From Zanthoxylum bungeanum (taxonomy: Eukaryota; Streptophyta; Magnoliopsida; Sapindales; Rutaceae): DNA of 64,000 bases. The position numbers and the translations under genes are program-made. Below are positions 14,075 to 62,432 of this stretch, piece after piece (position 1 is the first letter of the stretch; the number at the start of each line of letters is the position of its first letter). Location: assembly GCA_019454045.1 (NCBI GenBank), contig SKCR01025346.1, positions 124,001 to 188,000 on the forward strand, in the 5' to 3' direction. The notes below the pieces were generated by a model that was not told the origin of the DNA, searched no databases, and saw nothing but the letters and a program-made list of their open reading frames with translations.

Positions 14075-16687
14075 TGTTGGGGTTGGTGCTCAGAGTGCCA
14101 ATCCGCATCGTATTTATGTCTGATTCATGAATACGATCAATTCATTTTTCCATAATATTACTTATTTATGGTTGCACCTCTTGTTTTTATATATGTATTC
14201 GATCTGATTACGATTAGATTGAAACTAAATGTGGTTTAGTGATATGTATATATTAGACAAAGGCCCGATAATATATAATGCAATACACAGTTACAAAGGT
14301 AGTTTGTAATTGACATTGGGAAGTGTCACTGCTAAATGTATATTATCAAATATAGTTCCTGGTCAAGATTTACTAACACGGGTCGGTTAGTCAAATTGGC
14401 TGAGACCAGTACATGTCGTATATCGAGACTTGGTCCGATGGTTTATCCCAATGAACCATGAGTCTTGGGAGACTCGTATAGACGTGTAGGTGTTTATATT
14501 GGATAAACATTGAACGACTCACCAAATATTCTTAGTAGATGGTACACCAACGTCAATAAGAATATTCTCGGGTTGAGTAGCATAATGGTCCTTCGACTTG
14601 AGATACCACTGTGGATGTATGAGACATCATCCACACTTAGATGGCAGTCACGTCATCGATCTATTTAGATCAGACCTCCGCCTGTTCGTTGGGTGTGGAC
14701 CGATCCTCAGGATATCATGTGTGTATCAAGATAGGATACGTCAGTTCTGTGTACAGAGAATAGGTAGTTCATATGTGATTTGCAATCAATTAAATCTATG
14801 GACATAGTATACTTCAGAATGAGTTCCGAATGTTATTTATAGATTTCTAATAGAATCATCTACGGGATAATACCTATAGAGATTTGACGTTTACATCTAT
14901 ATCTCTGGGATTATCCGGATACCTGTGACGGAGGTATTATACGTATGCAATGACCTCGACATGTATGATTCAGCTAGTTTATATGTGGTCGTCATAATTT
15001 ATGGGTGGGTAAATTATGGACAATGAAATTGGATTTTGTGATGGATATACCTAAATCTAGAGAGTCTCACTAATGAAATATACTCGTAGAGCACTAGGGC
15101 GACTTTTATAAATAATGGTGATTATTTATAAATCGTTTAAACGTTAAACGAAAAATACATGCAAACGGGCCGAACCGATATTTCCTAATTAATGTGTATT
15201 TGTATTTACTATATGATATTTTTAAATACACATTAATAAATTATCAAATAAAGGTATTTGACATATATCATTTATATATGTATTTGAGATATTTAAAGTA
15301 AATATGATACATATATTTGAGATATTTGTATTTAATTATTTATTTATTTATTTAATTGTTAAATAATTAATATAATTAAAATATAAATATCTTACCAAAT
15401 GATAAAGTTAGGAAATGATTATAAGTGTAAATTGTTGACTTTACATTAAAGGAAAAGGTTGTCAAAATGGTTTAACTTCTTAAGATGTTTTGTTTAAATT
15501 ATTTGAAAAATGAAAATATCATTGTCCTTTATTTTTTGCTAATTTCGGCCAACACCCTAAATGAATATAATTGTTATATTTTAGAGTTGCTTTATTTGAC
15601 TTTAAGAAAATCATTAAATGGTTTGATGATGATAAATCAAGTTGATAAAGTAACTTTAAATGAAATAAATAATCAAGATATTTGTATATACTACACCAAT
15701 TTCGGCCAAGGCTTATTTTGTGGAGTATATATATTATTTTGTTTCATTTTTTAGGCTTTAACAAGTTCATTAGACACAAATGAAACACAAAAGAAGTTGA
15801 GAGAAAAGCTTGAAGGCTAAAGGAAAAAGGCTTGGAAAATCTTGGTTTTGTAAGTTTTTTCTTCAAAGTCTTCAACATGAAAATTATTTCTAACATGCTT
15901 GGCATCATTTTGTGTTGCTTTGATGTTCTCTCTACTCGTATAGTTTGTGTTTAATTTGTTGTGAACTTGAATGAGAGATGTGTGCATGTAAGTAAACTTG
16001 AAATGGTTTCTAAGGCTTACTTTTGATTCTTTGGAAATCAAGTTGCCATTCTAGATTTGTTAAGCCACTCATTGGTGACCTAAAATTGTTCTAGAGTTAT
16101 TTCAAAGTGGTGAGGCTTGTTTGGTGAAGCATTGAATGGATTAAAGTGTTGGATTTTAAAGAATTGGTAAAATTACTCAATTTGATGAAATTGAAAAATT
16201 AGGGTTCTTAAACCCACTCCAAATTTAGGGATTTTCATATATGTGATGTATTATGGAGTCTATATGATGCATGTAAAATTTTAGGTTGATTGGATTTGAT
16301 CTTGGCATGTTTTGAACTAAAGGGACCAAATTGCAATTAATTGAAAATTTTGGGTGGCTCACGGCATTAGACCAAAAATTGGAGATTTGTGTGAAATCTG
16401 ATTTTGATGCATTAGATGTGTTGAAAAATATTTTAGAAATGATTTAGAATCATCCAAAATTATATTTGACAACGTTTGGACTAAAATGATCAATTTACAA
16501 AGTTTTTAGGTGATTTAGTAATTACCAAGAAAATTGATTTCTTGTGTAATTTTTCAGAATTTAATAATTGGGTAATTAAATAAATAAGTTTATTTAATTG
16601 ATCCAAGAAAAATTTTGAAATCGGAAAATATTTTGATTTTCCGTGTTTCCGCTGCGTTACCGATATTCTCCCTTAAAACCCTCATCA
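14075..16687 (+). repeat. 3' LTR of the LARD-like element
   Basis: Matches the 5' LTR along its length with scattered differences (for example GAGTGCC for GAGCGCC near the start). It ends CCTCATCA at 16687 and is followed by the AATAG duplication. Confidence 0.92.
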
Positions 16688-16692
16688 AATAG

Positions 16693-18240: not shown

Positions 18241-18598
18241 AATAATGGTCTATTGCAGAATTCAAAAGAAATGTTATAGTAGCAAGTGTTTCAAGAAAGA
18301 ATACTTCGGTGAAAAAGCCTAAACAATCAACAAAGAAAAATCTCAAGTCCACAACAAAGACAAGATATGAAGGGCGGAAAGCCCGATGAATTGTTTATAG
18401 TAGATTGAAATATGGGACAAGTTGCATGTTTTTAGTTTGCTTTTATTATCTTAGGTCTATAAATGTCTAGGTTAATGTGTTTTGTTTGGTTTTGTAATAT
18501 AATGTTATGTAATATATATATATATATATGTTATAACAGGTATTATAAATGTATAGGCCTTTAAATCCCCCTATAATATACTGTTCTACAGGTACTAT
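18241..18598. repeat. Unassigned AT-rich flank with TA microsatellite and start of a tandem array
   Basis: A plus-strand frame from 18247 to 18387 is Lys/Ser/Thr-rich and ends in a stop; I do not recognise it. From about 18450 the sequence shows words such as GTCTATAAATGTC and TTTGGTTTTGTAATATAA that recur after the Athila-like element (from 26940), so that element inserted into a pre-existing repeat array. A TA run lies near 18512-18530. Confidence 0.5.
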
Positions 18599-20803
18599 TG
18601 ATGAGTGGTATTTATATCACTTATTCTCACTCATTTGACCTAATATTTTGTATAGTTTCTTGAGTTTTGTGAACGTTTTGGATGTGTTTTTCGTGTTATT
18701 TTGCAGATAAATAAAGTTTGGAAAGCATTGGAGGCAATTTGGGGCAAAAATGGACAAAAATGCGTCAACATGGATATTTTGGTTTAATCGCGTCGCGACG
18801 CCAAACTTTCAGCGTCGCGACGTCTAAAATGCGCCGAACAGTGCTAACGTGCACCGGGTCCACAAATCAGAATCTGGGAAAAGTTTGACTTTGCATAAAA
18901 TGCGCCGTGCACGTGTCACCATCACAGCCGATCTGCTAAAATACGTCGTGCACGTGTCAGCATCCTACGGTGCCGACAGTCATCATCGCCACGGTTTCCA
19001 CGTGTCATTCCATGTCATCAGCCACGTCAGCAAGTCAACAAGTCAACATTACCACCTCACCGCCACGTCATCATCAGCCAATCAGAAAGTGACACGTGTC
19101 GAAATTATACGGTGCCGACAGTCTCTTTCCCACGTGTCGCCACGTCGTTGCCACGTCACCGTCACGTCATCGCCACGTCAGCATCAATTATTGGATATCC
19201 TATCCTTATCTGACACGTGGTGGATAAGAATCTCTGCGACCAATCAGAAGCCGCCACGTGTCACAATAATTGAAGCTCAACCACCACGCCACATGTCACC
19301 TTATCAGCTTATCCAGAATCTTCAAACCGGCGAAACCAGAGCGTGCCACATCGACAAATCTGGCGTAGCGACGCTGAGGACCTGGCGTCGCGACGCTGGA
19401 TCCTACAGAGGCCTATAAATGGAGCTCGAGATTTCAGAATTGAATGTACCTTCATCTCTCTTCAATTCTTTCAAAAGAGAGAGTTTCTCTCTCTAGATTC
19501 TTTAGTTTTTAGTTTTTTTTTTATTTTTAGTTTTTAGTTTTGTAAATAATTTTAATTACGTTTTGTAATAATATAATTTAATTTTTACTTTTTACTTTTT
19601 ACAGTTTTTACTATTTACCATGAGGAGGTAACTTCCCAGCTAGGGTGAAAGGTAATTCTTTTACTGTTACTATTTAGATTAATCTCCCTTAAAAATAATA
19701 TATTCACTATTTAAAATATTGACTTAAAAATGATACCGCCAGATTGGTCGGTTGTAATTTATTTTAATCTGTTTAAACCTGACTAATAAAGGATACCGCC
19801 AGATTGGTCGGTTGGTAATTTAATTTTGATTCCGCCTTTATGGCTGGTTGGACTTAATTTGACTTAATCAGGTTATCGCCTATATGGCTGGTTGGAGAAA
19901 GAATCATAAGTTTATATATTATTTTATGGGAGATATCTAAATTAGTAGTAATAAAAGTAGTTCCTTTTACCTTAGCATTTTATTTTATTTTACTTTTCAG
20001 TTTTACTTTATGTCTTTTACTTTTCAGTATTTTTACTTTATGTCTTTTACTTTTAAGTTGTTACTAGCCCTAGTTATGTGTTAGTTATCTGGGGTTGTGA
20101 TGAATTCTAATATCACCGGTTTATAAGGGGTTATTTTATAGTTTGTGGTAATTTAAGGTTTACTTATTAAGTCTTAAGCTAATGCTTCTTGTTGTCTGAT
20201 CACCAATAAGATTGATTGTGGAAATCTAAAATGAACTAGACATAGGGATTTTAGGTTTCAGCCTTAGACTTAATAGCCCACGATCTTCCTTGAGGATAGA
20301 TAACCCTTTAATAGATTTCCTTACAGGATAGGAATATACCTGTCGGGCGGGGGTAGCCATAATTGGAACTTAAACTTAATGAATCCAGATAATTTGTTTG
20401 GCATAGACATATGTTCAATTGGGTTAAACTGAGTATTTGCGTCTGACCATCGACAGAGGCTTTTGCATAATTTAGTGTTCCAGGTTAGTAAACTGATTTA
20501 TTACACAAAATAAAATAACCACTTCATCTTTTAAATGATATTAGAACGATTCACGACCCTAGATCTTTGTGTCTTTTGTTATTTTCCTTAGTATTTTATT
20601 TTGTCTTTTTATTTATTTATTTGTTAAAACCACATTCAACCAATCAAACAATCATTCTCTTCTCCATTTAATTAGATATTTGTAAATAAATAGATTCAAC
20701 AATTAATAACTACAGTAGGAATTAAGTCCTCGTGGGATCGATATTTTTATACTACTTGAACGATACGTGCGCTTGCGTTATACGTGTGTGTTTACGCCGT
20801 TCG
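18599..20803 (+). repeat. 5' LTR of Athila-like element 1
   Basis: Starts TGATGAGTGG. The end is placed near 20803, six bases before the primer-binding site; the last bases (TTCGA) differ from the GGTCA end of the 3' LTR. It contains CGTCGCGACG palindromes, a dense ACGT-core array, a TATA box and four CCW5GG words. The long open frame at 18849-19418 is made by the ACGT array and is matched in the 3' LTR; I do not treat it as a gene. Confidence 0.88.
18849..19440 (+). promoter_or_regulatory. LTR promoter: ACGT-core array, CCAAT boxes and TATA box
   Basis: Between 18846 and 19262 there are about fifteen ACGT cores, about half of them full G-boxes (CACGTG), others CCACGTCA or CCACGTCG. Two CCAATCAG words (about 19079 and 19240) follow the CCAAT-box form. 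A TATA box, CCTATAAATGG, lies at about 19411, and a pyrimidine-rich transcript-start-like region follows. ACGT cores are bound by plant bZIP and bHLH factors, so ABA, stress or light responsiveness is plausible but not shown. The 3' LTR repeats this layout, with its TATA box near 25526. Confidence 0.6.
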
Positions 20804-20929
20804 AGTTTTTGGCGCCGTTGCCGGGGACTTATATTTCTTGAGTTGTTAATTTTGAAGCTATCTAATTTACTTGTATCTAATTTTCTTTATTTTATTTGTA
20901 ATTTTTATTCTTTCTTTTATTTCCAGGTG

Positions 20930-21504
20930 GTTGAAAAAGGGAACACTACTAGGAGATTGAAAGATTACGAGCTTTACAAGAAGATACACCCCACATCTGG
21001 GGCAACAGTCCGGTTTTCTGAGGCATGTTGTCCAGCCCAATGATTATCACTGGATGCCAGAACCAAACAATTTACATTTGCTCAACAGAACGAAATGGGG
21101 AGATGTGTAATATGTGATGGTAACCACCCGAGCGATCAATGTATATACCTTTCAGAGTGGCAGAATTTTCAGAATCATTCAAAGTAGAAAAACCATCACA
21201 TTTTCCATCTTATCCACCATCCATATGCGATTTTCATCAACAAATAAACCATCAGAGGAAGATCAGTTGTTAAACATGCTCAAAGATATGTTCGAGTTGG
21301 ATGCAATGCTTGAAACAAGCCAGAATCAATGGAAAGTATTCAGAGACAATCAGAATTCATTCAGAGGATGACAGATCAAATGAGACAATTCCAGAAAACC
21401 AGGACTACATACCTCAAGAACCAGTTTCAGATGACACTGATGAAGCCTTCGAGTACCAATCATTTCACAATGACACTTCAACAGAGGAGGAGGCTGAGCA
21501 GTAG
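20930..21504 (+). pseudogene. Decayed Athila-type gag with zinc knuckle
   Basis: After the primer-binding site, a frame through 20930-21043 ends in a stop. It is followed by a knuckle-like CVICDGNHPSDQC (about 21103-21141), a CX2CX3HX4C pattern close to the retroviral CX2CX4HX4C. Downstream pieces such as LLNMLKDMFELDA and FIQRMTDQMRQF look like the coiled-coil segment after the knuckle in Athila gag proteins. Stops and frame changes (21041, 21184, near 21300) break the frame. The assignment rests on position and the knuckle and is moderate. Confidence 0.55.
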
Positions 21505-22260
21505 TATCAACAACCAGAGGTATCAATTCAGGAACCCGAACCGGCAAAGTCTCAATTGACTTTTATTATTCAGATTCTGACGAGGATAAAGCTGATCTAT
21601 TTGTACCAACTGCACCAACAACGGAGGATCAAACTTTCAATCCTCAAAATGAAGATCTTGGAGCATACTTTGCAACGATGTTTGAAGAAGATCTTCCTGA
21701 ATCATCCAATCCAGTCATATCAGAGGATGAAGACCTAAAATCTGACATTTCTTTACATCCTCAGGTTGTCAATTTTGAAGCATGTATTTCACAGATGACA
21801 GATGAATAGCTGAATATGGAAATTTTAAAATACATCTGTGAAGAAAAGGTGGTGGAACAAGAAGCAGAGAAAATAGAGGAGCAAATGTCTGACCTTAATA
21901 AAGATCCAGAGCATTCAGGAGAAACATCGCGTTGTTTTTGGGGAGTACAAATCAAAGATATCGCCCAGAAGCTTGACAGAATGGAACTCCCATTCCAAGT
22001 CAAGCACCATACGAGACCTCTGATTTTCTTTCTTCTTTGCAGGAACCACTGGAACAACAAGGAGCAAAAAGGTGGCACGAGCACTGAATGGGACAAACTA
22101 TTTTTGCCACCTTACCGTTGAAGAGGCCCTTCAAAAGCAACGCTCACGGATTGTTTTGATCGGACATCTAAAACGACTTGAAACCTCCTAACAGATGAAT
22201 TTCAGTCACGTCTGGCTGAAGAGACGAAAAATTTAGCGCTAGCAGGGAGGCAACCCATGC
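21505..22260 (+). pseudogene. Unknown acidic coding relic in Athila-like element 1
   Basis: One frame from about 21505 to 21809 is strongly acidic (YYSDSDEDKADLF, FEEDLPESSNP, SEDEDLKSD), and 21816-22121 continues with EEKVVEQEAEKIEEQMSDLN. Stops and shifts separate the pieces. Another frame near 22060-22190 reads NGTNYFCHLTVEEALQKQ. I do not recognise a domain; it stands where pol should be. The stretch ends in GCGCTAGCAGGGAGGCAACC (22237-22256), which also marks the end of pol in the second Athila-like element (59388-59407 on minus). Confidence 0.4.
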
Positions 22261-22726
22261 AATTTGTTGTAATTTCTGTTTTTTATTTTGGTGTATACAT
22301 GTTGTAGAATTTTTTTTTTTTAATTTTGTGTGTTATTTTTGTAGGGAAAAGCACAAACGGAGCATTTTTAGACAGAAGGAATGGTGTTTTGGCAAAAATG
22401 AAAGCTAATTCATTAGCGATGGCTGAATAATGAATGGATTCTTGAAACGCATCCTAATGGATTTATATACCAAACGAGTAGCGTATTGCGCTACACAATT
22501 CTGTTGTCTTAATATTGCTTTGATTCGCTTTTCTATTGTAATTATCTTTATTTTCGTAAACAGGATCCAGACTTTTTGACCTTTCACGATTTCTTTTGTT
22601 GTTTAGCTAACAATCGTCCTTTGGAAGATATTAGTGCTATTATTAATCACCCTTTTCAGGTACTATAAATTCAGCAGTCATTAACTTTTGAAGGCATCCT
22701 GATTTGAAAAAGAAATACATAAAAAA

Positions 22727-23387
22727 ATGGAAGCCACTTCAAGAAGACGAGTTGAAAACATCTGTGTGTTTTGCCGGTGCGTGGTACTAGTGTTGGTACT
22801 AAACCATATACGTAGAAGCAGCACAGAATTGGGTCGAGTCTTAGCAGCAAGGAATATGCACTTAATATATGGCGGAGGGCGGAGGCAATCTCGGACTTAT
22901 GGGGATCGTTCAAAGGCTGTACAGGAAGGAGGCAGTAACGTTTTGGGAATCATCCCACAACCCTGGCAGAGGCAAATCTTATTGGATCATCAAACGGAGA
23001 GGAACTTATCGTGCCAGGTATGTCTGAACGACTGGTAGAAATGATTAACCATGCTGATGCTTTTATCACTTTGCCAGGTGGCTTGGGTACATTGGAGGAA
23101 ATTTTTATAGTTTTATCTTGGGCAAACCTGAACATACACCAGAAACCGCTTGGATTGTTCAAACTTGATGGATTTTATGATTTTCTTTGTGTGTTTCTTG
23201 ATGATGCTCGAGAAAGGGTTCGTGTCAAAACCTTTGAAAGAACTCCTCTTTACTGCCAGAACTGCTCCTGATCTAATAGACCACTCATAGCCTATGAACC
23301 ACAAGTTGACCCTATCCTTTCAAAGATAAATTGGTCCGAGGACGAACGTGGTAAGAAGCGTCGATTAATATGGATATTAACCTTTAA
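22727..23387 (+). pseudogene. LOG-type cytokinin riboside 5'-monophosphate phosphoribohydrolase, retrotransposon-borne copy 1
   Basis: LOG enzymes release active cytokinin bases from their nucleoside 5'-monophosphates in the cytosol or nucleus. Here the N-terminus MEATSRRRVENICVFC, then MHLIYGGG, EGGSNVLGIIP, MSERLVEM and the signature PGGLGTLEE (about 23077) appear in order, followed by SWANLNIHQKPLGLF and a Trp/Asp-rich end near 23340. The length (about 220 codons) matches the family. Frameshifts near 22775, 22880, 22960 and 23215 and a stop near 23288 make it a pseudogene. No introns interrupt it, whereas host LOG genes usually have several. It lies in sense between the former pol region and the polypurine tract. 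PGGLGTLEE resembles LOG10-type more than PGGYGTLEE enzymes, an inference from memory. Confidence 0.88.
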
Positions 23388-24712
23388 TTTCCTGTAGATT
23401 TTCAGCTAACCAGGTACGACCTTCTTAACTCTCATTTTACTGTTTAAGACATTGGGGACAATGTCTCATTTAGGTTTGGGGGAGGAAATTAGTTGATTAG
23501 TACCTTGTTTTTAGTTTGTATGTTGTTTTTATTTTTAGTCCAAAATTTTTCGAAAAATACAAAAAAATTGAAAAATTTTCAAAAAATTACAAAAATATTT
23601 TGCGTTTTTGTATTTTTAATTTGACTAAAAAAGTGAAATTGGTAAGAGATAGCCGAGTAAGGAGTTTCGACTCCTGATACGTATCTCAAGCCTATTTTCG
23701 AAACAAGTTAATTTTTGTTTATTTTATTTTGAATTATTTAATTTGTGAATTCTCCTTAAAACGGACTAAAAGGAATCTGCATATGCTCAATTGATAGATA
23801 TTATCAACATATATAGTAACATACGGACATAAGCTAAAATTGAAAAGTTTGTAATATTCAGTGCTCTAGTTTAATTGGAGGAAACATCTCAAAAAGCAAT
23901 GGAGTAAAAAAAAACGTCCGAGATCCGAGTTATTAAGTTTGTAAGGGTGTTTTAACACCTAGTGCCCTAAAGCCAACTGGTTTGGGAGTCACTGGCCCAA
24001 AGCTCGTTACATGGATCAAAGATTCTGCAAAAATATATATATCTGAAGTCTGGGTAATTAAGTCTGTAGGGGTGTCTTAACACCTGGTGCCCTAAAGCCA
24101 ACTGGTTTGGGAGTCACCGACCCAACACTCGCTACATATACGGAAGATATTGTATATAAATAATAAAAAAATAGAGAAAAGTCAAAGAAAAAATCAGAAA
24201 AATGAGAGAAATTATTCCATTGCTACAAAAGGTGTGAAATCTGATAGAACTTTAGGACAAAAATATTACTCTCTTATCAACTGCACTTATGATTGTTGTG
24301 GGCAAAAATGAGTTGATTAATATTTTGTTGGCTGTGTATATGGAGAATGGTAAAAACAATCGGAGAATTTACTTATTCAGTAATTTAAAATAAAACAAAA
24401 CAACTAGTAACTTGGAGTAGAAGTTTCACCTGATTAGTCACTAACATCTTTATTCTCTTTTCGCTTGTCTTTTTGCTTTTGTGTGCATTAGTTTTAATAC
24501 ATGTTTACTTTTGTAAAATGTTTGTGGGTATCATTGCTGTAAGCCCTCACGAGACTACAACTCGTCCACTAGGGACACCAAGGGGTTTAAAGGCTTGTTG
24601 CATACGCTAAATGCAATCGTGATCCCTACGAAAGTGGCTAGTTAATTTTATTTTCATGTTATTTTATTTTATGTTTTGCTCGAGGACTAGCAAAATGTTA
24701 GGTTTGGGGGTG
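23388..24712 (+). other. Conserved non-coding module between LOG and the polypurine tract
   Basis: Contains the inverted word GACATTGGGGACAATGTC (23451-23468) followed by GGTTTGGGGGAGG, a pair common in the 3' region of Athila elements. Two tandem units of about 125 bases follow (about 23925-24135; marker GCCCTAAAGCCAACTGGTTT), then a block near 24540-24640 (CTCGTCCACTAGGGACACC). Matching blocks occur in reverse order on the minus-strand element at 56380-57770. The final polypurine tract is at 24701-24712. No reading frame is supported. Confidence 0.7.
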
Positions 24713-26935
24713 TGATGAGTGGTATTTATATCACTTATTCCCACTCATTGACCTAATATTTTGTATAGTTTCTGAGTTTTGTGAACGTTTTGATGTATTT
24801 CGTGTTATTTTGCAGATAAATAAAGTTTGGAAAGAATTTGGAGGCAATTTGGGGCAAAAAGGGACAAAAATGCCTCAACAGGGATATTTTGGTCTTAATC
24901 GCGTCGCGACGCCAAGCTTTGAGCGTCGCGACGTCTAAAATGCGCCGAACAGTGCTAACGTGCGCCGGGTCCACAAATCAGAATCTGGGAAAAGTTTGAC
25001 TTTGCTAAAATGCGCCGTGCCACGTGTCACCATCACAGCCGATCTGCTAAAATGCGCCGTGCCACGTGTCAGCATCCTATGGTGCCGACAGTCATCATCG
25101 CCACGTGTTCCACGTGTCATTCCATGTCATCAGCCACGTCAGCAAGTCAACAAGTCAACATTGCCATCTCACCGCCACGTCATCATCAGCCAATCAGGAA
25201 GTGACACGTGTCGAAATTCTACGGTACCGACAGTCTCTTTCCCACGTGTCGCCACGTCGTTGCCACATCACCGCACGCCATCGCCACGTCAGCATCAATT
25301 ATTGGATATCATATCCTTATCTGACACGTGGCGGATAAGAATCTCTGCGACCAATCAGAAGCCGCCACGTGTCACAATAATTGAAGCTCAACCACCGCGC
25401 CACGTGTCACCTTATCAGCTTATCCAGAATCTTCAAACCGGACCGGCGAACCAGAGAGTGCCACGTCGACAAATCTGGCGTATCGACGCTGAGGACCTGG
25501 CGTCGCGACGCTGGATCCTACCGAGGCCTATAAATGGAGCTCGAGATTTCAGAATTGAATGTACCTTCCTCTCTCTTCAATCTTTCTAAAGAGAGAGTTT
25601 CTCTCTCTAGATTCTTTAGTTGTTAGTTTTTTTTTTATTTTTAGTTTTTTAGTTTTGTAAATAATTTTAATTACGTTTTGTAATAATAGTAATTTAATTT
25701 TTACTTTTTACTTTTTACAGTTTTTCCTATTTACCATGAGGAGGTAACTTCCCCAGCTAGGGTGAAAGGTAATTAATTCTTTTACTGTTACTATTTAGAT
25801 TAATCTCCCTTAAAAATAATATATTCACTATTTAAAAATATTGACTTAAAAAGGATACCACCGCCAGATTGGTCGGTTGGTAATTCATTTTAATAATCTG
25901 GTTTAAACCTGACTAATAAAGGATATCGCCAGATTGGTCGGTTGGTAATTTAATTTTGATGATTCGCCTTTATGGCTGGTTGACTTAATTTGACTTAATC
26001 AGGTTACCGCCTATATGGCTGGTTGGAGAAAGAATCACAAGTTTATATATTATTTTATAGGAGATATCTAAATTAGTAGTAATAAAAGTAATTCCTTTTA
26101 CCTTAGCATTTTATTTTATTTTACTTTTCAGTTTTACTTATGTCTTTTACTTTTCAGTATTTTTACTTTATGTCTTTTACTTTTAAGTTGTTACTAGCCC
26201 TAGTTATGTGTTAGTTATCTGGGGTTGTGATGAATTCTAATATCACCGGTTTATAAGGGGTTATTTTATAGTTTGGGTAATTTAAAGGTTTACTTATTAA
26301 GTCTTAAGCTTAATGCTTCTTGTTGTCTGATCACAAATAAGATTTATGTGGTAAATCTAAAATGAACTAGACATAGGGATTTTAGGTTTCAGCCTTAGAC
26401 TTAATAGCCCACGATCTTCCTTGAGGATAGATAACCCTTTAATAGATTTCCTTACAGGATAGGAATATATCTGTCGGGCGGGGGTAGCCATAATTGGAAC
26501 TTAAACTTAATGAATCCAGATAATTTGGTTGACATAGACATATGGTTCAATTGGGTTAAACTGGGTATTTGGCGTCTGACCATCGACAGAGGCTTTTGCA
26601 TAATTTAGTGTTCCAGGTTAGTAAACTGATTTATTACACAAACATAAAATAACCACTTCATCTTTTAAATGATATTAGAATGATTCACGACCCTAGATCT
26701 TTGTGTCTTTTGTTATTTTCCTTAGTATTTTATTTTGTCTTTTATTTATTTATTTTGTAAAACCACATTCAACCAATCAAACAATCATTATCTTCTCCAT
26801 TTAATTAGATATTTGTAAATAATAGATTCAACAATTAATAACAACAGTAGGAATTAAGTCCTCGTGGGATCGATATTTTTATACTACTTGAACGATACGT
26901 GGACTTGCGTTATACGTGTGTGTTTACGCCGGTCA
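24713..26935 (+). repeat. 3' LTR of Athila-like element 1
   Basis: Starts TGATGAGTGG directly after the polypurine tract and ends GGTCA at 26935, followed by the ACTAT duplication. It is close to the 5' LTR with many small indels. The open frame at 24960-25589 is the ACGT array again. Confidence 0.9.
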
Positions 26936-27360
26936 ACTATGTATGTCTATAAATGTCCAGGTTAATAAGTTTGTTTTGGTTTTGTAATATAAGTGATAAT
27001 ATATGTGTGTGTGTGTGTGTGTTAATACAGTTACTATAAATGTTCAGGCCTATAAATCTCCATGTAATATAATGTTCTACAGATATTATGCATGTGTTTA
27101 GTGTGTGTGTGTGTGTGTGTTAATACAGGTACTATAAATGTTCAGGCCTATAAATCTCCATGTAATATAATGTTTTACAGATTTTATGCATGTGTTTAGT
27201 TTGGTTCTCTTCAAGACATGAATTATGCATGTCTATAAATATCCATCACTATGGAATATTGGAATACATTCAAAATGCTTACATGTATTTAGCATTACAA
27301 AATATATCCATCCAGATTTTCTATTGTGAATGATTCCATTTGGACTTACAAGTTTCCATG
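26936..27360. repeat. Tandem array with TG microsatellites
   Basis: Resumes the array seen at 18450-18598. The unit includes GTCTATAAATGTCCAGG, a (TG)n run (about 27003-27022 and 27102-27121) and GGCCTATAAATCTCCATG. A secondary unit of about 113 bases is repeated at 27015-27200. No gene is visible. Confidence 0.7.
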
Positions 27361-31045: not shown

Positions 31046-31696
31046 TGACAAGAAACCCACATGGATTCGAAATCCAAGCAAACCCCAAGCAACAGACAGA
31101 ACCCCAAGAACCACGAATTTGATTTTGTAGGAACAAAACCCTTCCAAGGCCACAAAGAAGACCCACAAAGAACTTTCCCTTGAGAACCTTTAAGATGATT
31201 CCTTGTAGTGTTTTGCTAGCAATGGAGACGCCACTAAGTTTGCCAAACTTAGATAAGTCGATTTTAACTTGAAAAGGGGAATCCTTCCCTTACAAGAATT
31301 TGGCCATAGCCAAAAAGCATTAAGCTGTAATATTCTCTCAAATTTGTTGATTGTTTTCAAAATGAAAAAGAAAGAAAGCTTAAATAGTGTTACAAAGGGA
31401 AACCCTAAAGGCATAAAGACAACAATGCCCATAAAGGCTAAATTACAAAAATAAAGTCTTCAAGTCTTCAAAGGCCTGTGAATCTTCATTGAAAACTAAT
31501 TTGGGCCAAGTGAAGTGGCTTTGGGCCCTGTCTATTGAAGCCCACATGCGTCTCTATTTGTTTGTTGCAATCGGCCATAAAACTCTGAACTAATCCTGCC
31601 ATTGCTTCTCTAAGTCTTTTAGTCTTCTGCCTCGTAATTGGCCCTTCTGGTACTTGTAATGGGTCTTTTGCTTTGTTGTCGGCCTAGATCATGTCA
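31046..31696 (-). repeat. 3' LTR of the chromovirus-like element
   Basis: 651 bases, close to the LTR at 37874-38518. In element sense it starts TGACATGATC at 31696. The pol frame reads 13 bases into it. Confidence 0.9.
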
Positions 31697-52503: not shown

Positions 52504-54262
52504 TGAATACACACGCAAGCGCACGTATCGTTCAAGCAGTATAACTGTATCGATCCCACGAGCACTTAACACTAATGTTATTAATTGTTGAAACAAAATG
52601 TCTACAAGTATCCAAATTGATTGTTCGTTGGGTGGTGAATTTACCTAAAACAAACAAGTAAATAAAACCAATGTTGATTTCAAAATTAATAATGATATGT
52701 AAATATCAAGGGTTATGAATCCGACCAATATTCTACTAAAGCTGAGTTTATTACCTTATGTTTGTGCAATGTGCCAGTTTATTAACCTGGAACACGAATG
52801 TATTCATAAGCCTCTTCCGATGGTCAAATGAAAATATTCAAAGTTACTTAATTAACTATATTCCTATGTTAACTAAGAAACTCCAAATTCATTAAGTTTA
52901 AGTTCCAATTGCAGTTACACCCGCCCTACAGGTATATTCATATCCTGAAGGGAAATCCCCCTAAGTGAGATCGTGTGTTATTGAGTCTATGGCTAAACCT
53001 AAAATCTATTTTCCAAGTTCATTTTAAGTTTACCTAATCAATCTTATTGGTGGCCAATTCAACAAGACGCATTAAAAACTAGACTCAAAAAATAAACCAA
53101 AACATCACACAAAACACAAAGTAGCTCAACTTATAAAACCATTGATATTGGTATTCATCACAACCCTAGACAATATGTTTAGTTACAAAACATACCTAAA
53201 ATTATAAAATGCATAATTAAACAAAATAACATAATAGAGAATTAAAAAGTAATGAAAATTACAACAATAAAACAAAATGTTGGAGCTAGCCAGATAGGGG
53301 TTTCACTTTTAATACTTCAAATACAGATTACTCCCTTATCAATTAATCATTTCTTAAATTAATTATATTAAAACCGACCATATAGGTGGTGAATGTCATT
53401 TGTCCAAAGTCCAACCGACCATATAGGCGGTAACAAAATCATATAAACCGACCATGTAGGCGGTAACAATATTAGCACCTAAACCGACCATATAGTTGGA
53501 AATTAAGTCCAATAATATAAAACCGGCCATATAGGTGGTAAATAATTAATTCAAATTACTTATTTAAATTAAGGGCGTAAATCTAAATTATTATATTAAA
53601 AGTTTCACCCCAGACTCCAGCAAAAAGAGATTATCTACTCATGATGTAATTAAAAACACACAAAAAATTATTAAATAAATAAAAAGAAAATACAAGAAAA
53701 CTTAAATAAACATACAAGACACTTTCTTTTAGGTTTTCATGGAGAAATCCCCCAAAGAAAGCATGAAAAATTTTACAAAGTTTGGCTTGGTATTTATAAG
53801 CAAATATAAAGGCTTCCACCAATTTCTCCACCAAACACTCCACCAAACATGTCATGTTTGGTGGAAGTTTGTCAATTTCCATTTTTTTATTTTTTGTTTT
53901 TATTTTTTTGTTTTTGAAAATGACTTTAATAATTATATATAACACACTTTCAGATTTTTCATCAATTTCGGTCATGAAAACCTCAGAATTCGAAATTTCT
54001 ATGAACATCAAAGTTGTAGATCTTTAAGTCTTCTTTCATCTGGAACTTGAATCACCTCAATCCAATATCGGAATAAAAAGTTATGCCAAAATACGAAACT
54101 TGCGCAAAGTTGAAATTTCTGAAATTGTACTTCATTAGAATGCCATATCAAGTTTCCAACCTCCAAAATCCAAATGTCAATTCCAGTTTTTGTCATTCTT
54201 TGTTCCATATTTTATCCTGAATGATTTCATTGAGTTCCAATTTTATTTATCTGTAAAATAAG
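52504..54262 (-). repeat. 3' LTR of Athila-like element 2, main part
   Basis: The end at 52504 and the block up to about 52780 match the R/U5 side of the LTRs at 18599 and 24713. Five CCATATAGG-type words (53375-53540) parallel the four in element 1. The U3 side differs: no ACGT array, a TATAAATA box near 53790 on minus, and a different coding-free leader. The remaining 92 bases of LTR lie at 56282-56373. Confidence 0.8.
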
Positions 54263-56276
54263 TGTTGGACAATTATGACCCATAGCGTCACTATTTGTAC
54301 AGATCATTGTGTTGTTGTACAAATTAACTATGTGACAAAGGAGATTGCACTCTTATCATTTGTGATTAGATCACCTAGATGTATAAATGATGAAAGGTCC
54401 CTATGATTTGTTCCTGGACAGAGAATGATATGAGACATTATCAGTCCACGAAGGATAAATCATTAAATATCCCTAGTCAGAATATTATCGAGATTGGACA
54501 TCGATAAATACGTAAAAGACTAGTATTACACTTGTGCGCGTTTGTGAGAGCACAATGGCATAGTTCTCATATATTTGGGTATAGGATACTCATGCAAGTG
54601 TAATAGGAGGTTGTGTTTCACCGATGGTACGGGAAACAGCTTCACTCTGGATAAGACCCCGCGGAATCCCATTAGTAGTATGACTATGTGTCTATGGGAG
54701 TCCGCAATCAGGGTAGGTGTATTTGGTCTTAACCTGAGACTTGCATCGCTAATGCATACGACAATCTATATACTTTGGTTGAGGTCGTCCAGGGCTTTAA
54801 CAGGTTCTGTGTACGCCAATTCTGGGTATATCGAGAATCGTAGTATGTTGGGTGTGATGTCAAGATGGAAGTGTCACTCCAGTCATATGGAGATGATGGT
54901 CACGTAGGATACGGTACTAGTACTCTTAAATGCTGCAGCTATCGGGATAAAATGACAAGGTCAGGTTTATCCGATTATAGAGACTAGTCACCAGACATCC
55001 GACATGTGCTTCGTACGGGGCAGACACATTTCCAGCCCCAGGCCTAGCACGTGATCATCCGATGCTGGACAGAAATACGCAATACTACGGTATACTACGT
55101 CTGATACAGATCCTTTATTCCTGTAAGGATATTTCCGGAGAATTGGGGAGGCATGGCGCTTTGCTAGAGGCCAATCTTGTCTTGTAATTCGGTATAAACG
55201 TAGTACGAGGTACTTACGTGTTCGGATAGTCTGACGACCGAATTCACTGCCAACATATCCGGGGATCTCATGGGTCGCTTCCCAAAGATTCACCGATGAC
55301 GTATAACTCGCACTCTAAATTAATCTTGGATTAATTAGAAGAGAGAGAAAATTAATCTGGGATTAATTGCGGAGATATTTTATCTGGGATAAAATATCAA
55401 TTAAAGAGAGATAACGATTAATTTGGAATTAATCAATAAATTAATATATTTGATATATTAAACGAAATTGGATTTCGACGCGGAATTAAAATTAGATTTT
55501 AATTCGGGCGAGCGAATTAATTTAGAATTAATTCGTTAGCGACGTGAATAGTGACTTCGCTAGGCGTAATCATTTAATTACGACGCAACAGAAAATTTGT
55601 TAATTTAGAATTAGCGAACCCGAGCCCGAGATGATTTACGAGCGCATTCGTATTTCGAATTCGAGTGCGGCACGTCAAATCAAGCGTCAAATTGCTAGTC
55701 GCATCAATCGTTAAATCACTTGTCACTTTTAGTGATGTGACATGACAAGTTGATGGATTGAGTGATGTGGGTGGTTGGAGGCTTTAATGGTTTGACTTAT
55801 TAAAGCCAAATTCACATGAAATGCATGTGAAATTCAAATGAGTGTATATATTACACAAATTTGGAACCAACAAATCTAATCTCTCTTTTCCCTCTCTTTT
55901 CTTCACGCCATTTTTCTTCTTTTCTGGTTCTGTTATTACCGTGACTGTGGAGGAAGAAAAGGGAAGCAAGAGTTGGGTTTTTGTGGCAAAAACCGCAAGT
56001 GCTAGCACACTACGAGATATGCGAAGGTGATAGGGAAGCTCACCTATGAGCCGGGAACCGTTCGACGAAGCTTGGAGCTTGACGAAGGACCAAAAACGAA
56101 GTCAAAACAGTGAGCAAAAACTGCACTGCAGTTCACGCCAAACCAGTTCGTTTTTGAAGTTTCGTTGCTTGCCGTGTCGCTCAACCGATCGATGTAAGTA
56201 TTCTGCAACTTCTTCGATGTGTATTCGCAATGTTTTCATACTTATAATCGATCCTGGACCTAATTAGAAACCAACA
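54263..56276 (+). mobile_element. Solo LTR, 2.0 kb
   Basis: Starts TGTTGGACAA and ends AACCAACA, with a perfect target duplication ATAAG (54258-54262 and 56277-56281). It has no internal region, so the element was lost by LTR recombination. It sits in the 3' LTR of Athila-like element 2. The same family appears inverted at 62433-64000. Short ends of the TGTTGG...CCAACA type fit a Ty1-copia LTR, but without internal sequence the family stays open. Confidence 0.93.
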
Positions 56277-56373
56277 ATAAGAAAAACACATCAAAACGTT
56301 CATAAAACCTGAGAAACTATACAAAATATTAAGTAAAATGGACGGTAAATATTGATATTTTTTCCGCTCATCA

Positions 56374-57491: not shown

Positions 57492-57538
<47 letters not shown>

Positions 57539-57587
57539 TATTATTATTATTATTATATTATTATTATTATTATTCGTATTATTATTA

Positions 57588-57633
<46 letters not shown>

Positions 57634-57833: not shown

Positions 57834-58486
57834 CTAAAGGTTAAGATCCAAATTTATCTGATGCTTCTTACCACAATCATTATCAGACCAGTTTATCTTG
57901 GAAAAGATATGGTCAATTTTTGGTTCAAAGGCTAAGAGTTGGTCAATTAAATCATTGGTTGTTCTGGCAGTGAAGATGATATCTTTTACGGGTTTTGAAA
58001 GGAACCCATTTCTCCGGGCATCTTCAAGAAACACAAAAAGAAAGTCAACAAATCCATCAATATTAAACAGTCCAATTGGATTCTGGTGTATGTTCAAGTT
58101 CGCCAAGATATCACTATAAAAATTTCCTCCATCGTGCCTAAGCCACCTTGCAAAGCAATAAAAGCGTCAGCACGGTTAATCATTTTAACAAGTCGTTCGG
58201 ACATACCTGGCACGATGCATTCTTCTCCGTTTGATTGTCCTATAAGATTTGCGTCCGCCAAAGGTTTTGGGATAATTCTCAAAACTTGACTACCTCCTTC
58301 CTGTACGGCCCTTGAAATGTACCTCATCAGTCCAAAATTGCCACCGCCATATACTAAGTGCATATTTCTCTCAGCCATGACTCTACCCAATTCTTGTGAT
58401 GTCTCTATAAATTCTGGTTTAGATCCAGAACTAGTCCCACAAAACACATAGATGTTAATGACTCGTCTTCTTGAAGTTGCTTTCAA
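57834..58486 (-). pseudogene. LOG-type cytokinin riboside 5'-monophosphate phosphoribohydrolase, retrotransposon-borne copy 2
   Basis: About 217 codons without introns, matching LOG length. In order: YVFCGTSSGSKPEF, MHLVYGGGNFGLM, EGGSQVLRIIPKPL, MSERLVKMINRADAF, QGGLGTMEE where the family has PGGxGTxxE, then (in the next frame) ANLNIHQNPIGLF and INWSDND. The Arg of the MSER stretch and the final Glu of the signature, both important in LOG catalysis, are kept. A one-base deletion near 58102, inside the SWANL stretch, splits it into frames 58486-58094 and 58106-57834. The signature Pro is Gln. The C-terminus ends in LDLNL, an EAR-like form. It is sense to the element and sits where an env-like ORF is expected. 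With only two lesions it decayed less than copy 1. Confidence 0.9.
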
Positions 58487-58640: not shown

Positions 58641-58837
58641 TCTAGATCTTGTCGGCAAAAATGAAAGAAAATAACAAAATAAATCACAATTATTTGTTAA
58701 AGACAAAGAAATCAAAATTATGTACATGTAGTAACGGCTTGAATGACATCTATGTGTCAGGCACAAGCTTCCCATCCAATTTTCTTAAAAATTGGCAAAC
58801 TGTGTCTTTTAAAGTCAGATTCCAGAGATTTAATTAT

Positions 58838-59268
58838 TGTCTTTCTCTTCGAAACTGTGTATGTAAATTGCGAATCGCGTGATACACATATCCACTGGGA
58901 TGCGTCTCAAGAGTCAATGATATGTCATCTAAAGACTCCTTACTCATGTCATCCCTAATGAATTTTATTTTATCTTCGCAGTTATCAGACATTATTCCTA
59001 ATGAACGACAATGAGTATTGCATGTACAACGTTCACATGTATAACAAACACCTAATCATTTAGCTCTTCTTTTCTTAGCATATGTGCTCCTTTCTAAACC
59101 AGGCAGAAATGAAATAAAAGAGTCAGATGACTGACCTGCCAATCGGACTCGTACTTCAATTATCCAACAAATGTCACTATGAATACCTTTGATCATCATA
59201 AGTCTCAATCTTTTAATGCGTGCTTTATAGACTTTCATAAGAGAGTTTTAATGGAGAGAAGGAAAATC
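58838..59268 (-). pseudogene. Unknown Cys-rich frame between pol and LOG
   Basis: A minus-strand frame runs from about 59268 to a stop at 58838, with a single internal TGA at 59056-59058. It starts with a basic stretch (MKVYKARIKRLRLMMIKG), and after the TGA reads VCYTCERCTCNTHCRSLGI, a cluster of six Cys within 14 residues, then an acidic/charged part and HPSGYVYHAIRNL. I know no matching domain. It could be an env-position ORF of the element or a second captured fragment. Copy 1 lacks it. Confidence 0.4.
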
Positions 59269-59499
59269 CTTGTGAAGTTTTGCGAGAACGTCTTCCATCA
59301 TGTCTGTGACTTTTCCTACAAAAATTAAACACACAAAAATAAAACACACCTATCTAAATATATACACAAATTACATGGGTTGCCTCTCTGCTAGCGCTAA
59401 GTTTAACGTCGTCAGCTAGACATGATTGCCCCAACGTTAAGCTGGATCGGCAAGTGTGAGACTTTTTTTTTGTCACTGAAATGAATCTCCCCAATAGTG

Positions 59500-61115
59500 T
59501 TTGACACGTTGGTTGTTGACCATGAATGTGTTGTTGGAGTTGGGGTTATGTATCTCAACTACTCTGTAGGGTAACACTTGGGTAATCACAAATGGACCTG
59601 ACCATCGTGATTTCAGCTTGCCAGGGAAATCTTCAACCTTGAGTTATATAACAACACATGCTGCCCTGGATCCAGTTGTCTTCGCACTATTTTTTTTCCA
59701 TGCCACTTCATGGTCTTTTCTTTATACAGTTTGACATTCTCATAAGCATGGAGGTGAAATTCTTCCAATTCGTTTAGTTGGTGGAGTCGTTTCTCTCATA
59801 CTGCTTGCAGATCAAAATTTAGCTTTTTCAATGCCTAATACGCTTTATGTTCGAGCTCCAAAGGCAAATGGCATGCTTTCCCAAACACCATTTGATATGG
59901 GGACATTCCAATGGGTGTCTTCTAAGCTGTCCGGTAGGCCCATAATGCGTCATCTAATTTTGTGAGTAACTCTGTATTTGGATAGGAGTGCATCGAAGTA
60001 TCTACTGTAGAAGTGTGTGCCATCATCACTTATGATTGCCCGAGGTGTTCCGAAACGAGTGAAAATATTCTTTTTGAGGAATTTTAACACCACTTTGGAG
60101 TCATTTGATGGCAGTGCTATTGCTTCAAACCATTTGGAGATGTAGTCTACTGTAACCAGAATGTACAGGTTTCCATATGATGGAACAAAGGGTCCCATAA
60201 AATCAATCCTGCATACATCAAATATCTCCACTTCGAGAATGCTTTGAAGAGGTCATTCATTTCTCCTCGAAATATTTCCTATTCTCTAGCACCTATCACA
60301 TTGAAGAACGAATAAGTGCGCATCTTTAAATAAAGTGGGCCAGAACAAACCTGATTGTAGGACTTTGGCTGCAGTTTTATCTCCGCTGAAATGTCCTCCG
60401 TATGGTGATGAATGACAATGTTTCATGACAATATTGACCTCATCTTGTGGTACACAACGCCGCAGGCACAATGTTTGAATATGTATGGCTCATCCCAGAC
60501 ATAGTGATTGACTTCTTTGAAGAATTTCTTTTGTTGCTGATGTGTCCATTCAAACGGCCATTTCCCCGATACTATGTAGTTTATATAGTCAGCGTACCAT
60601 GGAACTTCCTATTCCTTGATGGCAAACAACAGTTCATCTGAAAAGTTTCTTTGATTGTCAGCTCAGTGCCAGTTTTATCTCCATTCTCTAGCCTCGATAA
60701 GTGATCTGCCACTTGATTTTTTTATCTCATTCCTATCTCGGATCTCCACGTCAAATTCTTGCAGTAGAAGCACCCAACAGATCAATTTGGGCTTGGAATC
60801 TTTCTTCGATATTAGGTATTTGATTGCTGAATGATCTGTGTAGACCACCACTTTAGGACCCTACAGATAGGGGTATAATTTATCAAAAGCAAACACAACT
60901 ATGAGCAATTTCTTTTCAGTTGTTGTGTAGTTGAGTTGTGATTCATTCAAAGTTTTGATGGCGTAGTAAATGGTGTGAAAAATTTTCGCCTTACGTTGTC
61001 CCAAAACTGCACCTACAACAAAATCACTGGCATCGCACATCACTTCAAATAGAAACATCCAGTCTGATGCTACTATAATGGGGGCAGAGACCAGCTTATG
61101 TTTCAAGATCTCAAA
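59500..61115 (-). pseudogene. Athila-type pol relic: RNase H and integrase
   Basis: From right to left on minus: RNase H start (MCDASDFVVGAVLGQRKAKI near 61040, YTTTEKKLLIVVFAFDK), then [17 protein letters not shown], the integrase zinc region (KHCHSSPYGGHFSG near 60410, LQCDRC at 60286), the integrase core ([13 protein letters not shown] near 60205, [13 protein letters not shown] near 60020), and the C-terminal FPGKLKSRWSGPF (about 59600). This set is characteristic of Athila pol. Stops and shifts lie near 60860, 60470, 60285, 60232 and 59949. It ends near 59490, about 100 bases before GCGCTAGCAGAGAGGCAACC. Confidence 0.88.
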
Positions 61116-62432
61116 TGTAACGACCGGTAATTCTGCTACTGTTATATTATAATACCATGGTATCATAACATACATTATATTGGGACACAGATATACTTAT
61201 GAAACAACTTTGGGGGCAATCGGTAAATTCTTCGGAAGTCCAATACGAGATTCTAAGATATTCCATTCCGGACAGCCCAAGGTATTTAGGTCGTAACTTT
61301 TTCATAAAAACTCTGATTTTTATGAATTCTATATCTTCAAAAAGCTAAGAACAAGATCTACAACTTTCGTATTGAACATTTTTCCAAATTCGGAACTGAA
61401 ATAGGTCAAAAACGTAAGTAAAAAATTCAAATGAATAGTAATTTCGGGTTCAATTGTAAAAATCTCAAACTTTCCACAAACTTCTAAATTTTTCTCCAAT
61501 TATCCAAATATCCAAAAAGCCCTGGTATATAAAGGAGACACTATTCACAAATACTCAAAAAATGAAACAAAAATGAGAAGAGAAAGCAAAAACGTGGGGA
61601 TGAGGAAGGAAGAATAAAGAAGAAAGAAGAAGAGAAGAAGGAAAAAGGAAGAAGAATAAGAAGTGGTAATCAATCATTCATCAATCTAAGAAGAAGAAAA
61701 GCTACCATGGGGGCTTGAGGAATGAAGAAAAGTCCAGAGAAAAAAGGTAAAAGATTTGACCCATAAACTTAGTTGTTAGATTTTAGAAGCATAATGATAG
61801 AATATGGATGTTGGGATGATTATTATGTGTAGGTGATTGGGATGTGATGATGATTGAGATGATAATTGTGTGATTAATCATATGGATTGAAAATTGTTAA
61901 GTTTTGGGTTTAATCATATGGAGTATGTGGAATAGATTGAAAGTTGGTTGATGATGAGATGATGACTTAGTTTATGTGGAATTGAGTGTTATATGATGTT
62001 TTGAGTATTGGTTGTAGTATGGGAATGTTAGGGTTTTGCATTGGGTGAATTGTAATTGAAGAAGAAAATGGCAGAATCCTGGAAAACTGCCTCGTGTCGC
62101 GACGTAAAAGAGATGTGTGTCACGACGCACAAGAGGAAAATGGATGCACGTTTCTGGATGTTGTGAGTCGCGACGCGTAAGGAGCTGCGCCGCGACGCGT
62201 GGCACAAACCTTTCCTGAATAGTTTCAAGCCATCCCAGTTGCACCCGAGCGCTTTAGAGGCTACCATATAAACCTCGTATCAACCCGTATGTATAAAATT
62301 AAGTCATGGCATACGTACTATATGCCTTAGAATTCTAGCCCTTATTTGAATAGGAAAAATTCAATTTGTTTTCGATCTATATATTCTTAGTGTATTTTCT
62401 AATCGAAATTATCGATGGTAGATCATCGCAGG
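61116..62432 (+). mobile_element. Ty3-type LTR inserted into Athila-like pol
   Basis: Starts TGTAACGACCGG at 61116, cutting the Athila RNase H frame. TGTAACGACC starts are common in plant Ty3 LTRs. A TATATAAAGG box lies near 61527 and a purine-rich GAAGAAG stretch near 61600-61700. It contains GTCGCGACG words (about 62096-62206). It is broken at 62433 by another LTR before a TG...CA end can be seen, so its length and family are open. Confidence 0.6.

What the first reader, a model, noticed from the sequence alone, without database searches (positions are those of the whole stretch)
22727..23387. An Athila-like retrotransposon carries a LOG cytokinin-activating enzyme gene
A full-length, intronless LOG-type coding sequence lies in sense orientation inside an 8.3 kb element whose borders are proven by an ACTAT target duplication, a tRNA-Asp primer-binding site and a polypurine tract. 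A hormone-activating enzyme as cargo in the env position of an LTR retrotransposon is not something I know to be described. If an intact copy exists elsewhere it could alter local cytokinin levels when LTR-driven.
Basis: partly seen in the sequence, partly recalled or inferred. Interest (0 to 1): 0.88.

Follow-up and report, generated by a model that had tools for sequence, protein, structure and literature searches.

The report
Retrotransposon family carrying a LOG-like enzyme
A jumping-gene family in a large plant genome carries a copy of a plant hormone-pathway enzyme gene that natural selection has kept intact in many copies, and whose protein has a new tail that looks made for the cell nucleus and for switching genes off.

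Summary
Window 18599-26935 is an 8.3-kb LTR element (TSD ACTAT, PBS, purine tract) with a sense, intronless LOG-type sequence at 22727-23387. This copy is broken, and no RT, RNase H or integrase core was found in the element. A second, older element on the minus strand has RNase H and integrase upstream of LOG, so LOG sits in the env position. The window's genome (3.96 Gb) holds many copies: 125 of the 150 best-scored LOG matches have no stop. LOG is under purifying selection (pN/pS 0.25 among 19 open copies; 0.35 among 13 pol-less copies, 8 of them broken). LOG-type ("YgdH") domains in Gypsy elements of Citrus and Populus are already in print (PMC9289625), so the cargo is no first. Apparently new: related LOGs end in LxLxL (EAR-like) in 44 of 55 non-redundant non-canonical sequences against 0 of 35 canonical ones, usually after a basic cluster. 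They keep the catalytic Arg/Glu but have lost most prenyl-pocket residues, so "cytokinin-activating" is doubtful. I favour a nuclear, corepressor-recruiting LOG-derived accessory protein. A carlavirus-like nucleic-acid-binding ORF lies upstream of LOG at 23 of 30 genome loci.

The parts
18594..18598 (.). target site duplication ACTAT, left copy (element A)
18599..20804 (+). 5' LTR of element A
   Evidence: pairs with 24713-26935, 2132 of 2189 aligned bases identical
20810..20827 (+). primer-binding site TGGCGCCGTTGCCGGGGA (complement of a tRNA-Asp 3' end, recalled)
20905..22165 (+). remnant of a gag-like ORF (418-420 codons open in genome loci L009, L015, L024; zinc-knuckle-like CVICDGNHPSDQC, by recall); no Pfam gag hit here
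22536..22726 (+). element leader before LOG, shared with element B (151 of 185 aligned bases identical), with candidate 3' splice sites
   Evidence: the splice sites are my reading of the sequence, not predicted by a tool
22727..23387 (+). LOG-like gene of element A, broken by indels
24700..24712 (+). purine-rich tract next to the 3' LTR
24713..26935 (+). 3' LTR of element A
26936..26940 (.). target site duplication ACTAT, right copy
60678..61196 (-). element B RNase H (two pieces)
   Evidence: RT_RNaseH_2 69.7 bits, RT_RNaseH 54.1 and 32.2 bits
59953..60489 (-). element B integrase zinc domain and core
   Evidence: Integrase_H2C2 41.1 bits, rve 53.2 bits
59616..59795 (-). element B integrase C-terminal piece (recalled motif; no Pfam hit)
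   Evidence: matches 21 of 30 genome LOG loci
58837..59247 (-). element B carlavirus-NABP-like ORF, one stop inside
   Evidence: 46 of 62 identical to the genome ORF P0248, which reaches the PF05515/PF01623 cut-offs; the window pieces themselves stay under them
57837..58486 (-). LOG-like gene of element B: first codon not ATG, one frameshift and a changed PGG motif seen, tail INLDLNL kept
52513..56373 (-). 3' LTR of element B, interrupted by about 2 kb of other sequence

Best explanation
An Athila-like LTR retroelement lineage captured a LOG gene, probably from an mRNA, in the env position, and kept it as a true accessory gene. Shown: element location and env position; many stop-free intronless copies; purifying selection between the two window copies, among open genome copies and within a pol-less derivative family; retained catalytic residues; a derived C-terminal tail (basic cluster + LxLxL); a changed substrate pocket. 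One capture for the window copies is shown by shared element flanks. Inferred: LTR-driven, possibly spliced, expression of a nuclear LOG-fold phosphoribohydrolase. It would act on a nucleotide other than, or besides, prenylated AMP, and its EAR-type tail would recruit TOPLESS-type corepressors to dampen host genes that restrain the element (defence, silencing or cytokinin-response genes). Because pol-less copies also keep LOG under selection, the benefit probably falls on the copy or cell that expresses it.
For: Anatomy. Copies: 125 of 150 best-scored matches stop-free; 7 of 21 places found by DNA similarity fully open. Selection: A versus B dN/dS 0.29 (bootstrap 0.19-0.45), no in-phase stop in 205 codon pairs; 19 open copies 0.246 (0.18-0.33); 13 pol-less copies 0.35 (0.24-0.51), 8 of them broken. 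Tail: LxLxL in 44 of 55 non-redundant non-canonical proteins, 0 of 35 canonical; shuffled tails of 51 of them end so in 322 of 51000; 17 of 19 open genome copies end in LxLxL. The tail is low-confidence, disorder-like, in the AlphaFold model. Fold: 2a33 TMt 0.94. Catalytic Arg kept in 46 of 51 and Glu in 49 of 51. Clade: window copies inside the mostly EAR-tailed clade, 100/99 support, apart from canonical LOG7.
Against: Both window copies are broken, as are 14 of the 21 places. No expression data. EAR and NLS function rest on motifs only. Selection estimates use simple counting on non-independent pairs; the sample is biased towards intact copies. Gene conversion from pol-bearing copies, or repeated origin, could mimic selection in pol-less ones. 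Element flanks are less diverged than LOG synonymous sites, so neutral rates are uncertain. In other plant species the LOG genes were not shown to lie in elements. The canonical set is LOG7-like only.
Confidence: 0.6

Rival explanations
1. One reading: the cargo is an ordinary cytokinin-activating LOG, and its expression raises local cytokinin and cell division, helping the element reach meristem or germline cells.
For: LOG fold, PGGxGTxxE motif and catalytic Arg/Glu mostly retained; purifying selection.
Against: The residues matching CgLOG His97, Lys100 and Glu125, proposed to bind the prenyl group (PMC4979012, passages read), are Ser, Leu and Ile in 19 of 19 open genome copies, while Met96 and Trp129 are kept. 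It does not explain the new tail.
Confidence: 0.22
2. The protein is a pseudoenzyme: the LOG fold only binds a nucleotide or dimerises, and the work is done by the EAR tail.
For: Pocket changes; tail conserved though disorder-like.
Against: Catalytic Arg (46 of 51), Glu (49 of 51) and the phosphate-binding glycines and threonine (50-51 of 51) are kept.
Confidence: 0.12
3. LOG is a passive passenger (transduplicated gene fragment) with no function.
For: Many copies are broken: 14 of 21 places, and both window copies.
Against: pN/pS 0.25-0.35, few second-position changes, and stop-free frames in 125 of 150 best-scored copies.
Confidence: 0.04
4. The LOG is a multicopy host gene, and the element only happens to surround it.
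For: Host plants do have LOG gene families (recalled).
Against: 16 of 16 fetched stretches have LTR sequence downstream and 14 of 16 also upstream; the element flanks are shared between A and B at 151 of 185 and 115 of 143 bases.
Confidence: 0.02

Closest known systems
Gypsy elements with a YgdH/LONELY GUY domain (Citrus, Populus; PMC9289625, citing Steinbauerova 2011)
   Same: LOG-type domain as an extra domain in Ty3/Gypsy elements of flowering plants.
   Different: In the section read it is only listed in a screen; position, selection, tail, pocket and pol-less derivatives are not described there.
Orchid Gypsy elements with an m6A RNA demethylase-like domain (same paper)
   Same: A captured host enzyme domain fixed in a Gypsy lineage.
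   Different: A 2-ODD enzyme in Tat-family elements near Ogre, not LOG.
Athila env-position ORFs
   Same: Extra ORF between integrase and 3' LTR, tRNA-Asp type PBS, 5-bp duplication.
   Different: LOG-derived instead of an env-like or ORF-1 protein. PF03078 was not among the hits of the ORFs scanned.
Canonical plant LOG (At2g37210, LOG7)
   Same: Fold, PGGxGTxxE, catalytic Arg and Glu.
   Different: Canonical ones keep His/Lys/Glu of the prenyl site and have no LxLxL tail (0 of 35).
Pathogen effectors with EAR motifs that bind TOPLESS (HaRxL21 PMC7446885, Jsi1 PMC8126959; search listing only)
   Same: A parasite protein with an LxLxL-type motif.
   Different: No sequence relation was tested; TPL binding is untested here.

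Membership tests
LTR retrotransposon (Ty3/Gypsy) | LTR pair, TSD, PBS, PPT | tested here: met
LTR retrotransposon (Ty3/Gypsy) | RNase H before integrase, then 3' region | tested here: met
   element B only; none of these, nor RT, in element A
Athila lineage | Position in an RT/RH/INT tree | not tested
   No tree of pol domains was made; no RT match in window 56000-64000 with an RT query
Athila lineage | PBS complementary to tRNA-Asp | tested here: inconclusive
   The sequence is there; its match to tRNA-Asp is recalled, and the window has no tRNA gene. PMC6317226 passages list tRNA-Asp among primers of non-chromoviruses
Athila lineage | Athila ORF-1 (PF03078), found in 16% of Athila elements (PMC6317226) | tested here: not met
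   Not among Pfam hits of the ORFs scanned; not a required feature
LOG (cytokinin riboside 5'-monophosphate phosphoribohydrolase) | PGGxGTxxE motif and catalytic Arg/Glu | tested here: met
   window A keeps PGGLGTLEE, window B has a Pro-to-Gln change in it
LOG (cytokinin riboside 5'-monophosphate phosphoribohydrolase) | LOG fold | tested here: met
   model of intact relative P0001, pLDDT 84; best PDB match 2a33, TMt 0.94
LOG (cytokinin riboside 5'-monophosphate phosphoribohydrolase) | NCBIfam equivalog NF058542 at its cut-off of 300 bits | tested here: inconclusive
   Only pieces were scanned: best 73.6 bits; the broader TIGR00730 is passed by the B piece (106.9 against 96.35)
LOG (cytokinin riboside 5'-monophosphate phosphoribohydrolase) | Prenyl-group pocket Met/His/Lys/Glu/Trp | tested here: not met
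   His, Lys and Glu replaced in 19 of 19 open copies; Met and Trp kept
LOG (cytokinin riboside 5'-monophosphate phosphoribohydrolase) | Releases free cytokinin | not testable with these tools
   -
EAR-motif protein | LxLxL or DLNxxP | tested here: met
   consensus from abstract starts of PMC6283911 and PMC9956375 (listing)
EAR-motif protein | Binds TOPLESS/TPR, represses transcription | not testable with these tools
   -
Carlavirus nucleic-acid-binding protein (upstream ORF) | Pfam PF05515/PF01623 at or above cut-off | tested here: met
   Both reached in L017, L019 and L020, some only just; not in the L013 ORF tried nor in the two window B pieces

The most novel reading that the evidence does not exclude
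An endogenous plant retroelement lineage has evolved a two-gene accessory cassette, a carlavirus-like nucleic-acid-binding protein plus a LOG-derived nuclear nucleotidase with a corepressor-recruiting tail. It would manipulate host transcription, nucleotide pools or silencing, much as accessory genes do in true retroviruses. LOG is so useful that even derivatives that shed pol keep it.
Probability: 0.33. Interest if true: 0.92.

Novelty: new variant of a known kind. Interest (0 to 1): 0.78.

Why it matters
Extra genes in plant retroelements are common, but their function is mostly unknown. Here one is tied to a known enzyme fold, is under measurable selection in many copies, and carries a short motif with a known, easily tested partner (TOPLESS). 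It makes the question "do plant retrotransposons carry host-manipulating genes?" directly testable. It also warns that some plant genes annotated as LOG may be element genes of different function.

Tried and rejected
Viral contig scans with P0002 and P0190 found no relative. Rfam (gathering threshold) and tRNA scans of the window were empty. Steinbauerova 2011 is not held. A paper search needing retrotransposon, lysine decarboxylase, gypsy and ORF together gave none. A search for at least three of LONELY GUY, EAR motif, TOPLESS and cytokinin riboside gave 11 papers, 10 listed, none joining LOG and EAR in the title or abstract start shown. A search for at least three of carlavirus, cysteine-rich, retrotransposon, nucleic acid binding protein and Athila gave 22 papers, 15 listed, none joining carlavirus and retrotransposon in title or abstract start. 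Considered and rejected: host gene caught by chance between LTRs; passenger pseudogene; frameshifts as proof of death (open copies exist). Control: wrong frames gave ratios 0.55 and 1.74, so one wrong frame is also below 1. The label count on the tree was not obtained (script error at the end). Host LOG genes of this genome were not seen: a canonical LOG7 query returned 150 scored matches at 51-53% identity. My first counts treated 21 loci as distinct; one search shows that L003, L004 and L009 agree over 3653 bases at 99.9% or more, and L036-L038 at 100%, so some may be duplicated contigs.

Full report
What is in the window. LTR identity is 2132 of 2189 (K2P 0.0265). The LOG stretch 22727-23387 is sense and intronless, and its second half is unmistakably LOG (Pfam PF03641 85.9 bits; 2a33 E 6e-23); the first half alone stays under Pfam's cut-off. 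It is broken: the frame from ATG ends after 103 residues, and twelve gap events inside it separate it from the window's second copy. Four internal ORFs scanned gave no pol domain, and RT, RNase H and integrase queries found none in the whole element. The LTR pair shows 35 gap events beside 57 substitutions, so part of the indels may be assembly error.

A second element. A window self-comparison showed a reverse-strand copy of LOG plus flanks at 57.6-58.7 kb, 794 of 1028 aligned columns identical. In that element (B) RNase H and integrase domains precede LOG, and the 3' LTR follows, interrupted by about 2 kb. LOG therefore sits where env sits. No RT was found in 56000-64000 with an RT query, so B is incomplete in the window. 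B LOG keeps one 132-codon open piece and the C-terminal LDLNL. Its first codon is not ATG, it has a frameshift, and its PGG motif has a Pro-to-Gln change, so this copy looks dead.

Selection in the window. Between A and B, 205 codon pairs (10 skipped) give dN 0.148, dS 0.508, ratio 0.29 (bootstrap 0.19-0.45), with no in-phase stop in either copy. Wrong frames give 0.55 and 1.74. The shared flanks (151 of 185 and 115 of 143 identical) show that the two copies descend from one capture. The flanks are as similar as LOG as a whole (527 of 645) and less diverged than LOG synonymous sites, so they may be constrained too.

The genome. The window's genome (3.96 Gb, 51709 contigs) answered three searches. 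With the window LOG DNA, the 40 scored matches are 92-100% identical over the query (5891 first-look candidates, which is not a copy count). With protein P0001, 125 of 150 scored matches have no stop (12 of the first 30 rows, 113 of the other 120), two of them shown at 100% identity. With a Citrus LOG7, the 150 scored matches are 51-53% identical over about 198 residues in one exon, 144 without a stop. I take these as element-type copies from their identity and their overlap; they were not fetched. By my reading of the two lists six places are shared, so roughly 260 stop-free places are seen. The lists are capped and ranked by score, so they favour intact copies, and duplicated contigs may inflate them. 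Of 21 of the 40 places that I examined, 7 are fully open; three of the broken ones (L003, L004, L009) are near-identical.

Context. Sixteen 10-kb stretches show LTR sequence downstream of LOG in 16 of 16 and upstream in 14 of 16. Twelve share element A's layout. B's RNase H and integrase pieces and an RT from another Gypsy element of the window match none of the 16 elements; their only matches in these loci lie outside the LTRs of L010, which appears to sit inside a related element. That RT query is from another lineage but did find the RT beside L010 (34% identity, E 7e-28), so it is a usable control. I call these copies pol-less. The other four of the 16 differ upstream, with gag (PF03732 in L017) and a protease-like stretch fused to an integrase C-terminal tail (both by recalled motifs). 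LTR K2P in five pol-less copies is 0.016-0.027. At recalled plant rates of 0.5-1.3e-8 per site per year this means about 0.6-2.7 million years. Among the 30 loci, an integrase C-terminal match lies upstream of LOG in 21 and the pre-LTR region downstream in 24.

Selection in the genome. pN/pS is 0.247 among the 7 open copies, and 0.246 (0.18-0.33) among 19 open copies, namely those 7 plus 12 of the 30 loci (two of the 30 were not read by the script). It is 0.35 (0.24-0.51) among 13 pol-less copies including the window's, of which 8 are broken (0.41) and 5 open (0.27). Copies that shed pol kept LOG under constraint. Gene conversion or repeated origin from pol-bearing copies is not excluded.

The protein tail. 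Three database searches (each lists only its best 120) gave 247 proteins, of which 176 are 203-232 residues long. I grouped these as 35 canonical (defined by PGGYGT and MHxRKAEM; LOG7-like only), 8 Acer/Xanthoceras type (defined by a basic tail without LxLxL, so their tail counts are circular) and 133 others; after removing those over 88% identical: 7, 4 and 51. Of the 51, 44 have LxLxL within the last 8 residues, that is 44 of 55 if the Acer/Xanthoceras type is counted in; canonical 0 of 35 before removal. The three leucines are invariant, by selection of the set, in the 43 that end in LxLxL, while the residues between them vary (1.9 and 2.3 bits). LxLxL occurs elsewhere in these proteins at 2 of 10461 positions, and shuffled tails end so in 322 of 51000. 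A K-[KR]-x-[KR] cluster lies in the last 17 residues of 38 of 51 and of 0 of 35 canonical proteins. Exceptions to the tail include truncated or shifted ones (P0009, P0022, P0135, P0147) and altered ones (P0010, P0023, P0139). In the genome, 17 of 19 open copies end in LxLxL and 19 of 19 have a basic cluster.

The tree and the pocket. In a tree made without tails (51 rows), canonical LOG7 stands apart (100/100), Xanthoceras and Acer types branch next, and the mostly EAR-tailed clade with both window copies has 100/99 support. So the basic tail seems to precede the EAR tail. PMC4979012 (passages) names Arg99 and Glu122 of CgLOG as catalytic and Met96, His97, Lys100, Glu125 and Trp129 as the proposed prenyl site. 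In the 51, Arg is kept in 46 and Glu122 in 49; Lys is replaced in 48 and Glu125 in 49; His is kept in 22. In the 19 open genome copies the site reads Met, Ser, Leu, Ile, Trp, with Arg in 18 and Glu122 in 18. P0134, the first branch of the EAR clade (its place has only 88/73 support), still has His, Lys and Glu, which suggests that the tail came before the pocket change. The AlphaFold model of P0001 (pLDDT 84.1, tail 203-217 under 50) matches At2g37210 best (TMt 0.94).

Neighbour gene. At 23 of 30 genome loci an ORF related to a 151-residue query lies about 0.35 kb upstream of LOG. Three such ORFs reach the cut-offs of Pfam Viral_NABP and Carla_C4, the carlavirus nucleic-acid-binding protein, some only just (best L017, 31.5 bits against 23). 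One other ORF tried (L013) and the two window B pieces do not. Among 16 gapless copies pN/pS is 0.445, among the 9 stop-free 0.43 (the 16 may include the identical loci L036-L038). Element A kept only its last codons. Carlavirus relatives are reported (recalled, no call) to act in silencing suppression and cell proliferation.

Known or new. PMC9289625 (section 12) already reports the YgdH/LONELY GUY domain in Gypsy elements. The tail, the pocket change, selection in pol-less derivatives and the carlavirus-like neighbour were not met in my searches, which cover open-licence papers only and of which I saw listings, not full texts. I therefore class it as a new variant of a known kind.

Noticed in passing
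window 58837-59247 (-); L020:3191-3697; L017:3058-3552; L019:3363-3761: ORF upstream of LOG related to carlavirus nucleic-acid-binding Cys-rich proteins (PF05515, PF01623), with matches at 23 of 30 genome LOG loci; exchange with an RNA virus lineage is possible.
   Followed up: partly
window 18452-18598 and 26942-27200: Element A sits inside a tandem-like repeat: the flanks match each other at 78% and a 98-bp unit is repeated next to the right end.
   Followed up: no
window 18599-20804 versus 24713-26935: 35 gap events against 57 substitutions between the LTRs: unusually many indels, perhaps assembly error in repeats.
   Followed up: partly
L010:1-10000: This LOG element appears inserted in another element: integrase-core match at 3-65 on the left, integrase zinc, RNase H and RT matches at 8440-9943 on the right, outside its LTRs.
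   Followed up: no
window 7269-9879 and 14075-16689: A 2.6-kb direct repeat pair at 95% identity, perhaps LTRs of another element.
   Followed up: no
window 31684-36468 (-): Another Ty3/Gypsy element with long open frames (RT 138.8 bits; ORFs).
   Followed up: no
window 43240-44628 (-): Open 462-codon frame without a Pfam match, bZIP-like by recall only; perhaps a host gene.
   Followed up: no
window 54700-55692 and 62997-64000: Inverted repeat pair at 90%, the first copy inside the interrupted LTR of element B.
   Followed up: no
P0121-P0137 (Xanthoceras, Acer proteins): Multi-member LOG groups with canonical pocket residues and a basic tail without LxLxL; whether they are element-borne is unknown.
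   Followed up: no
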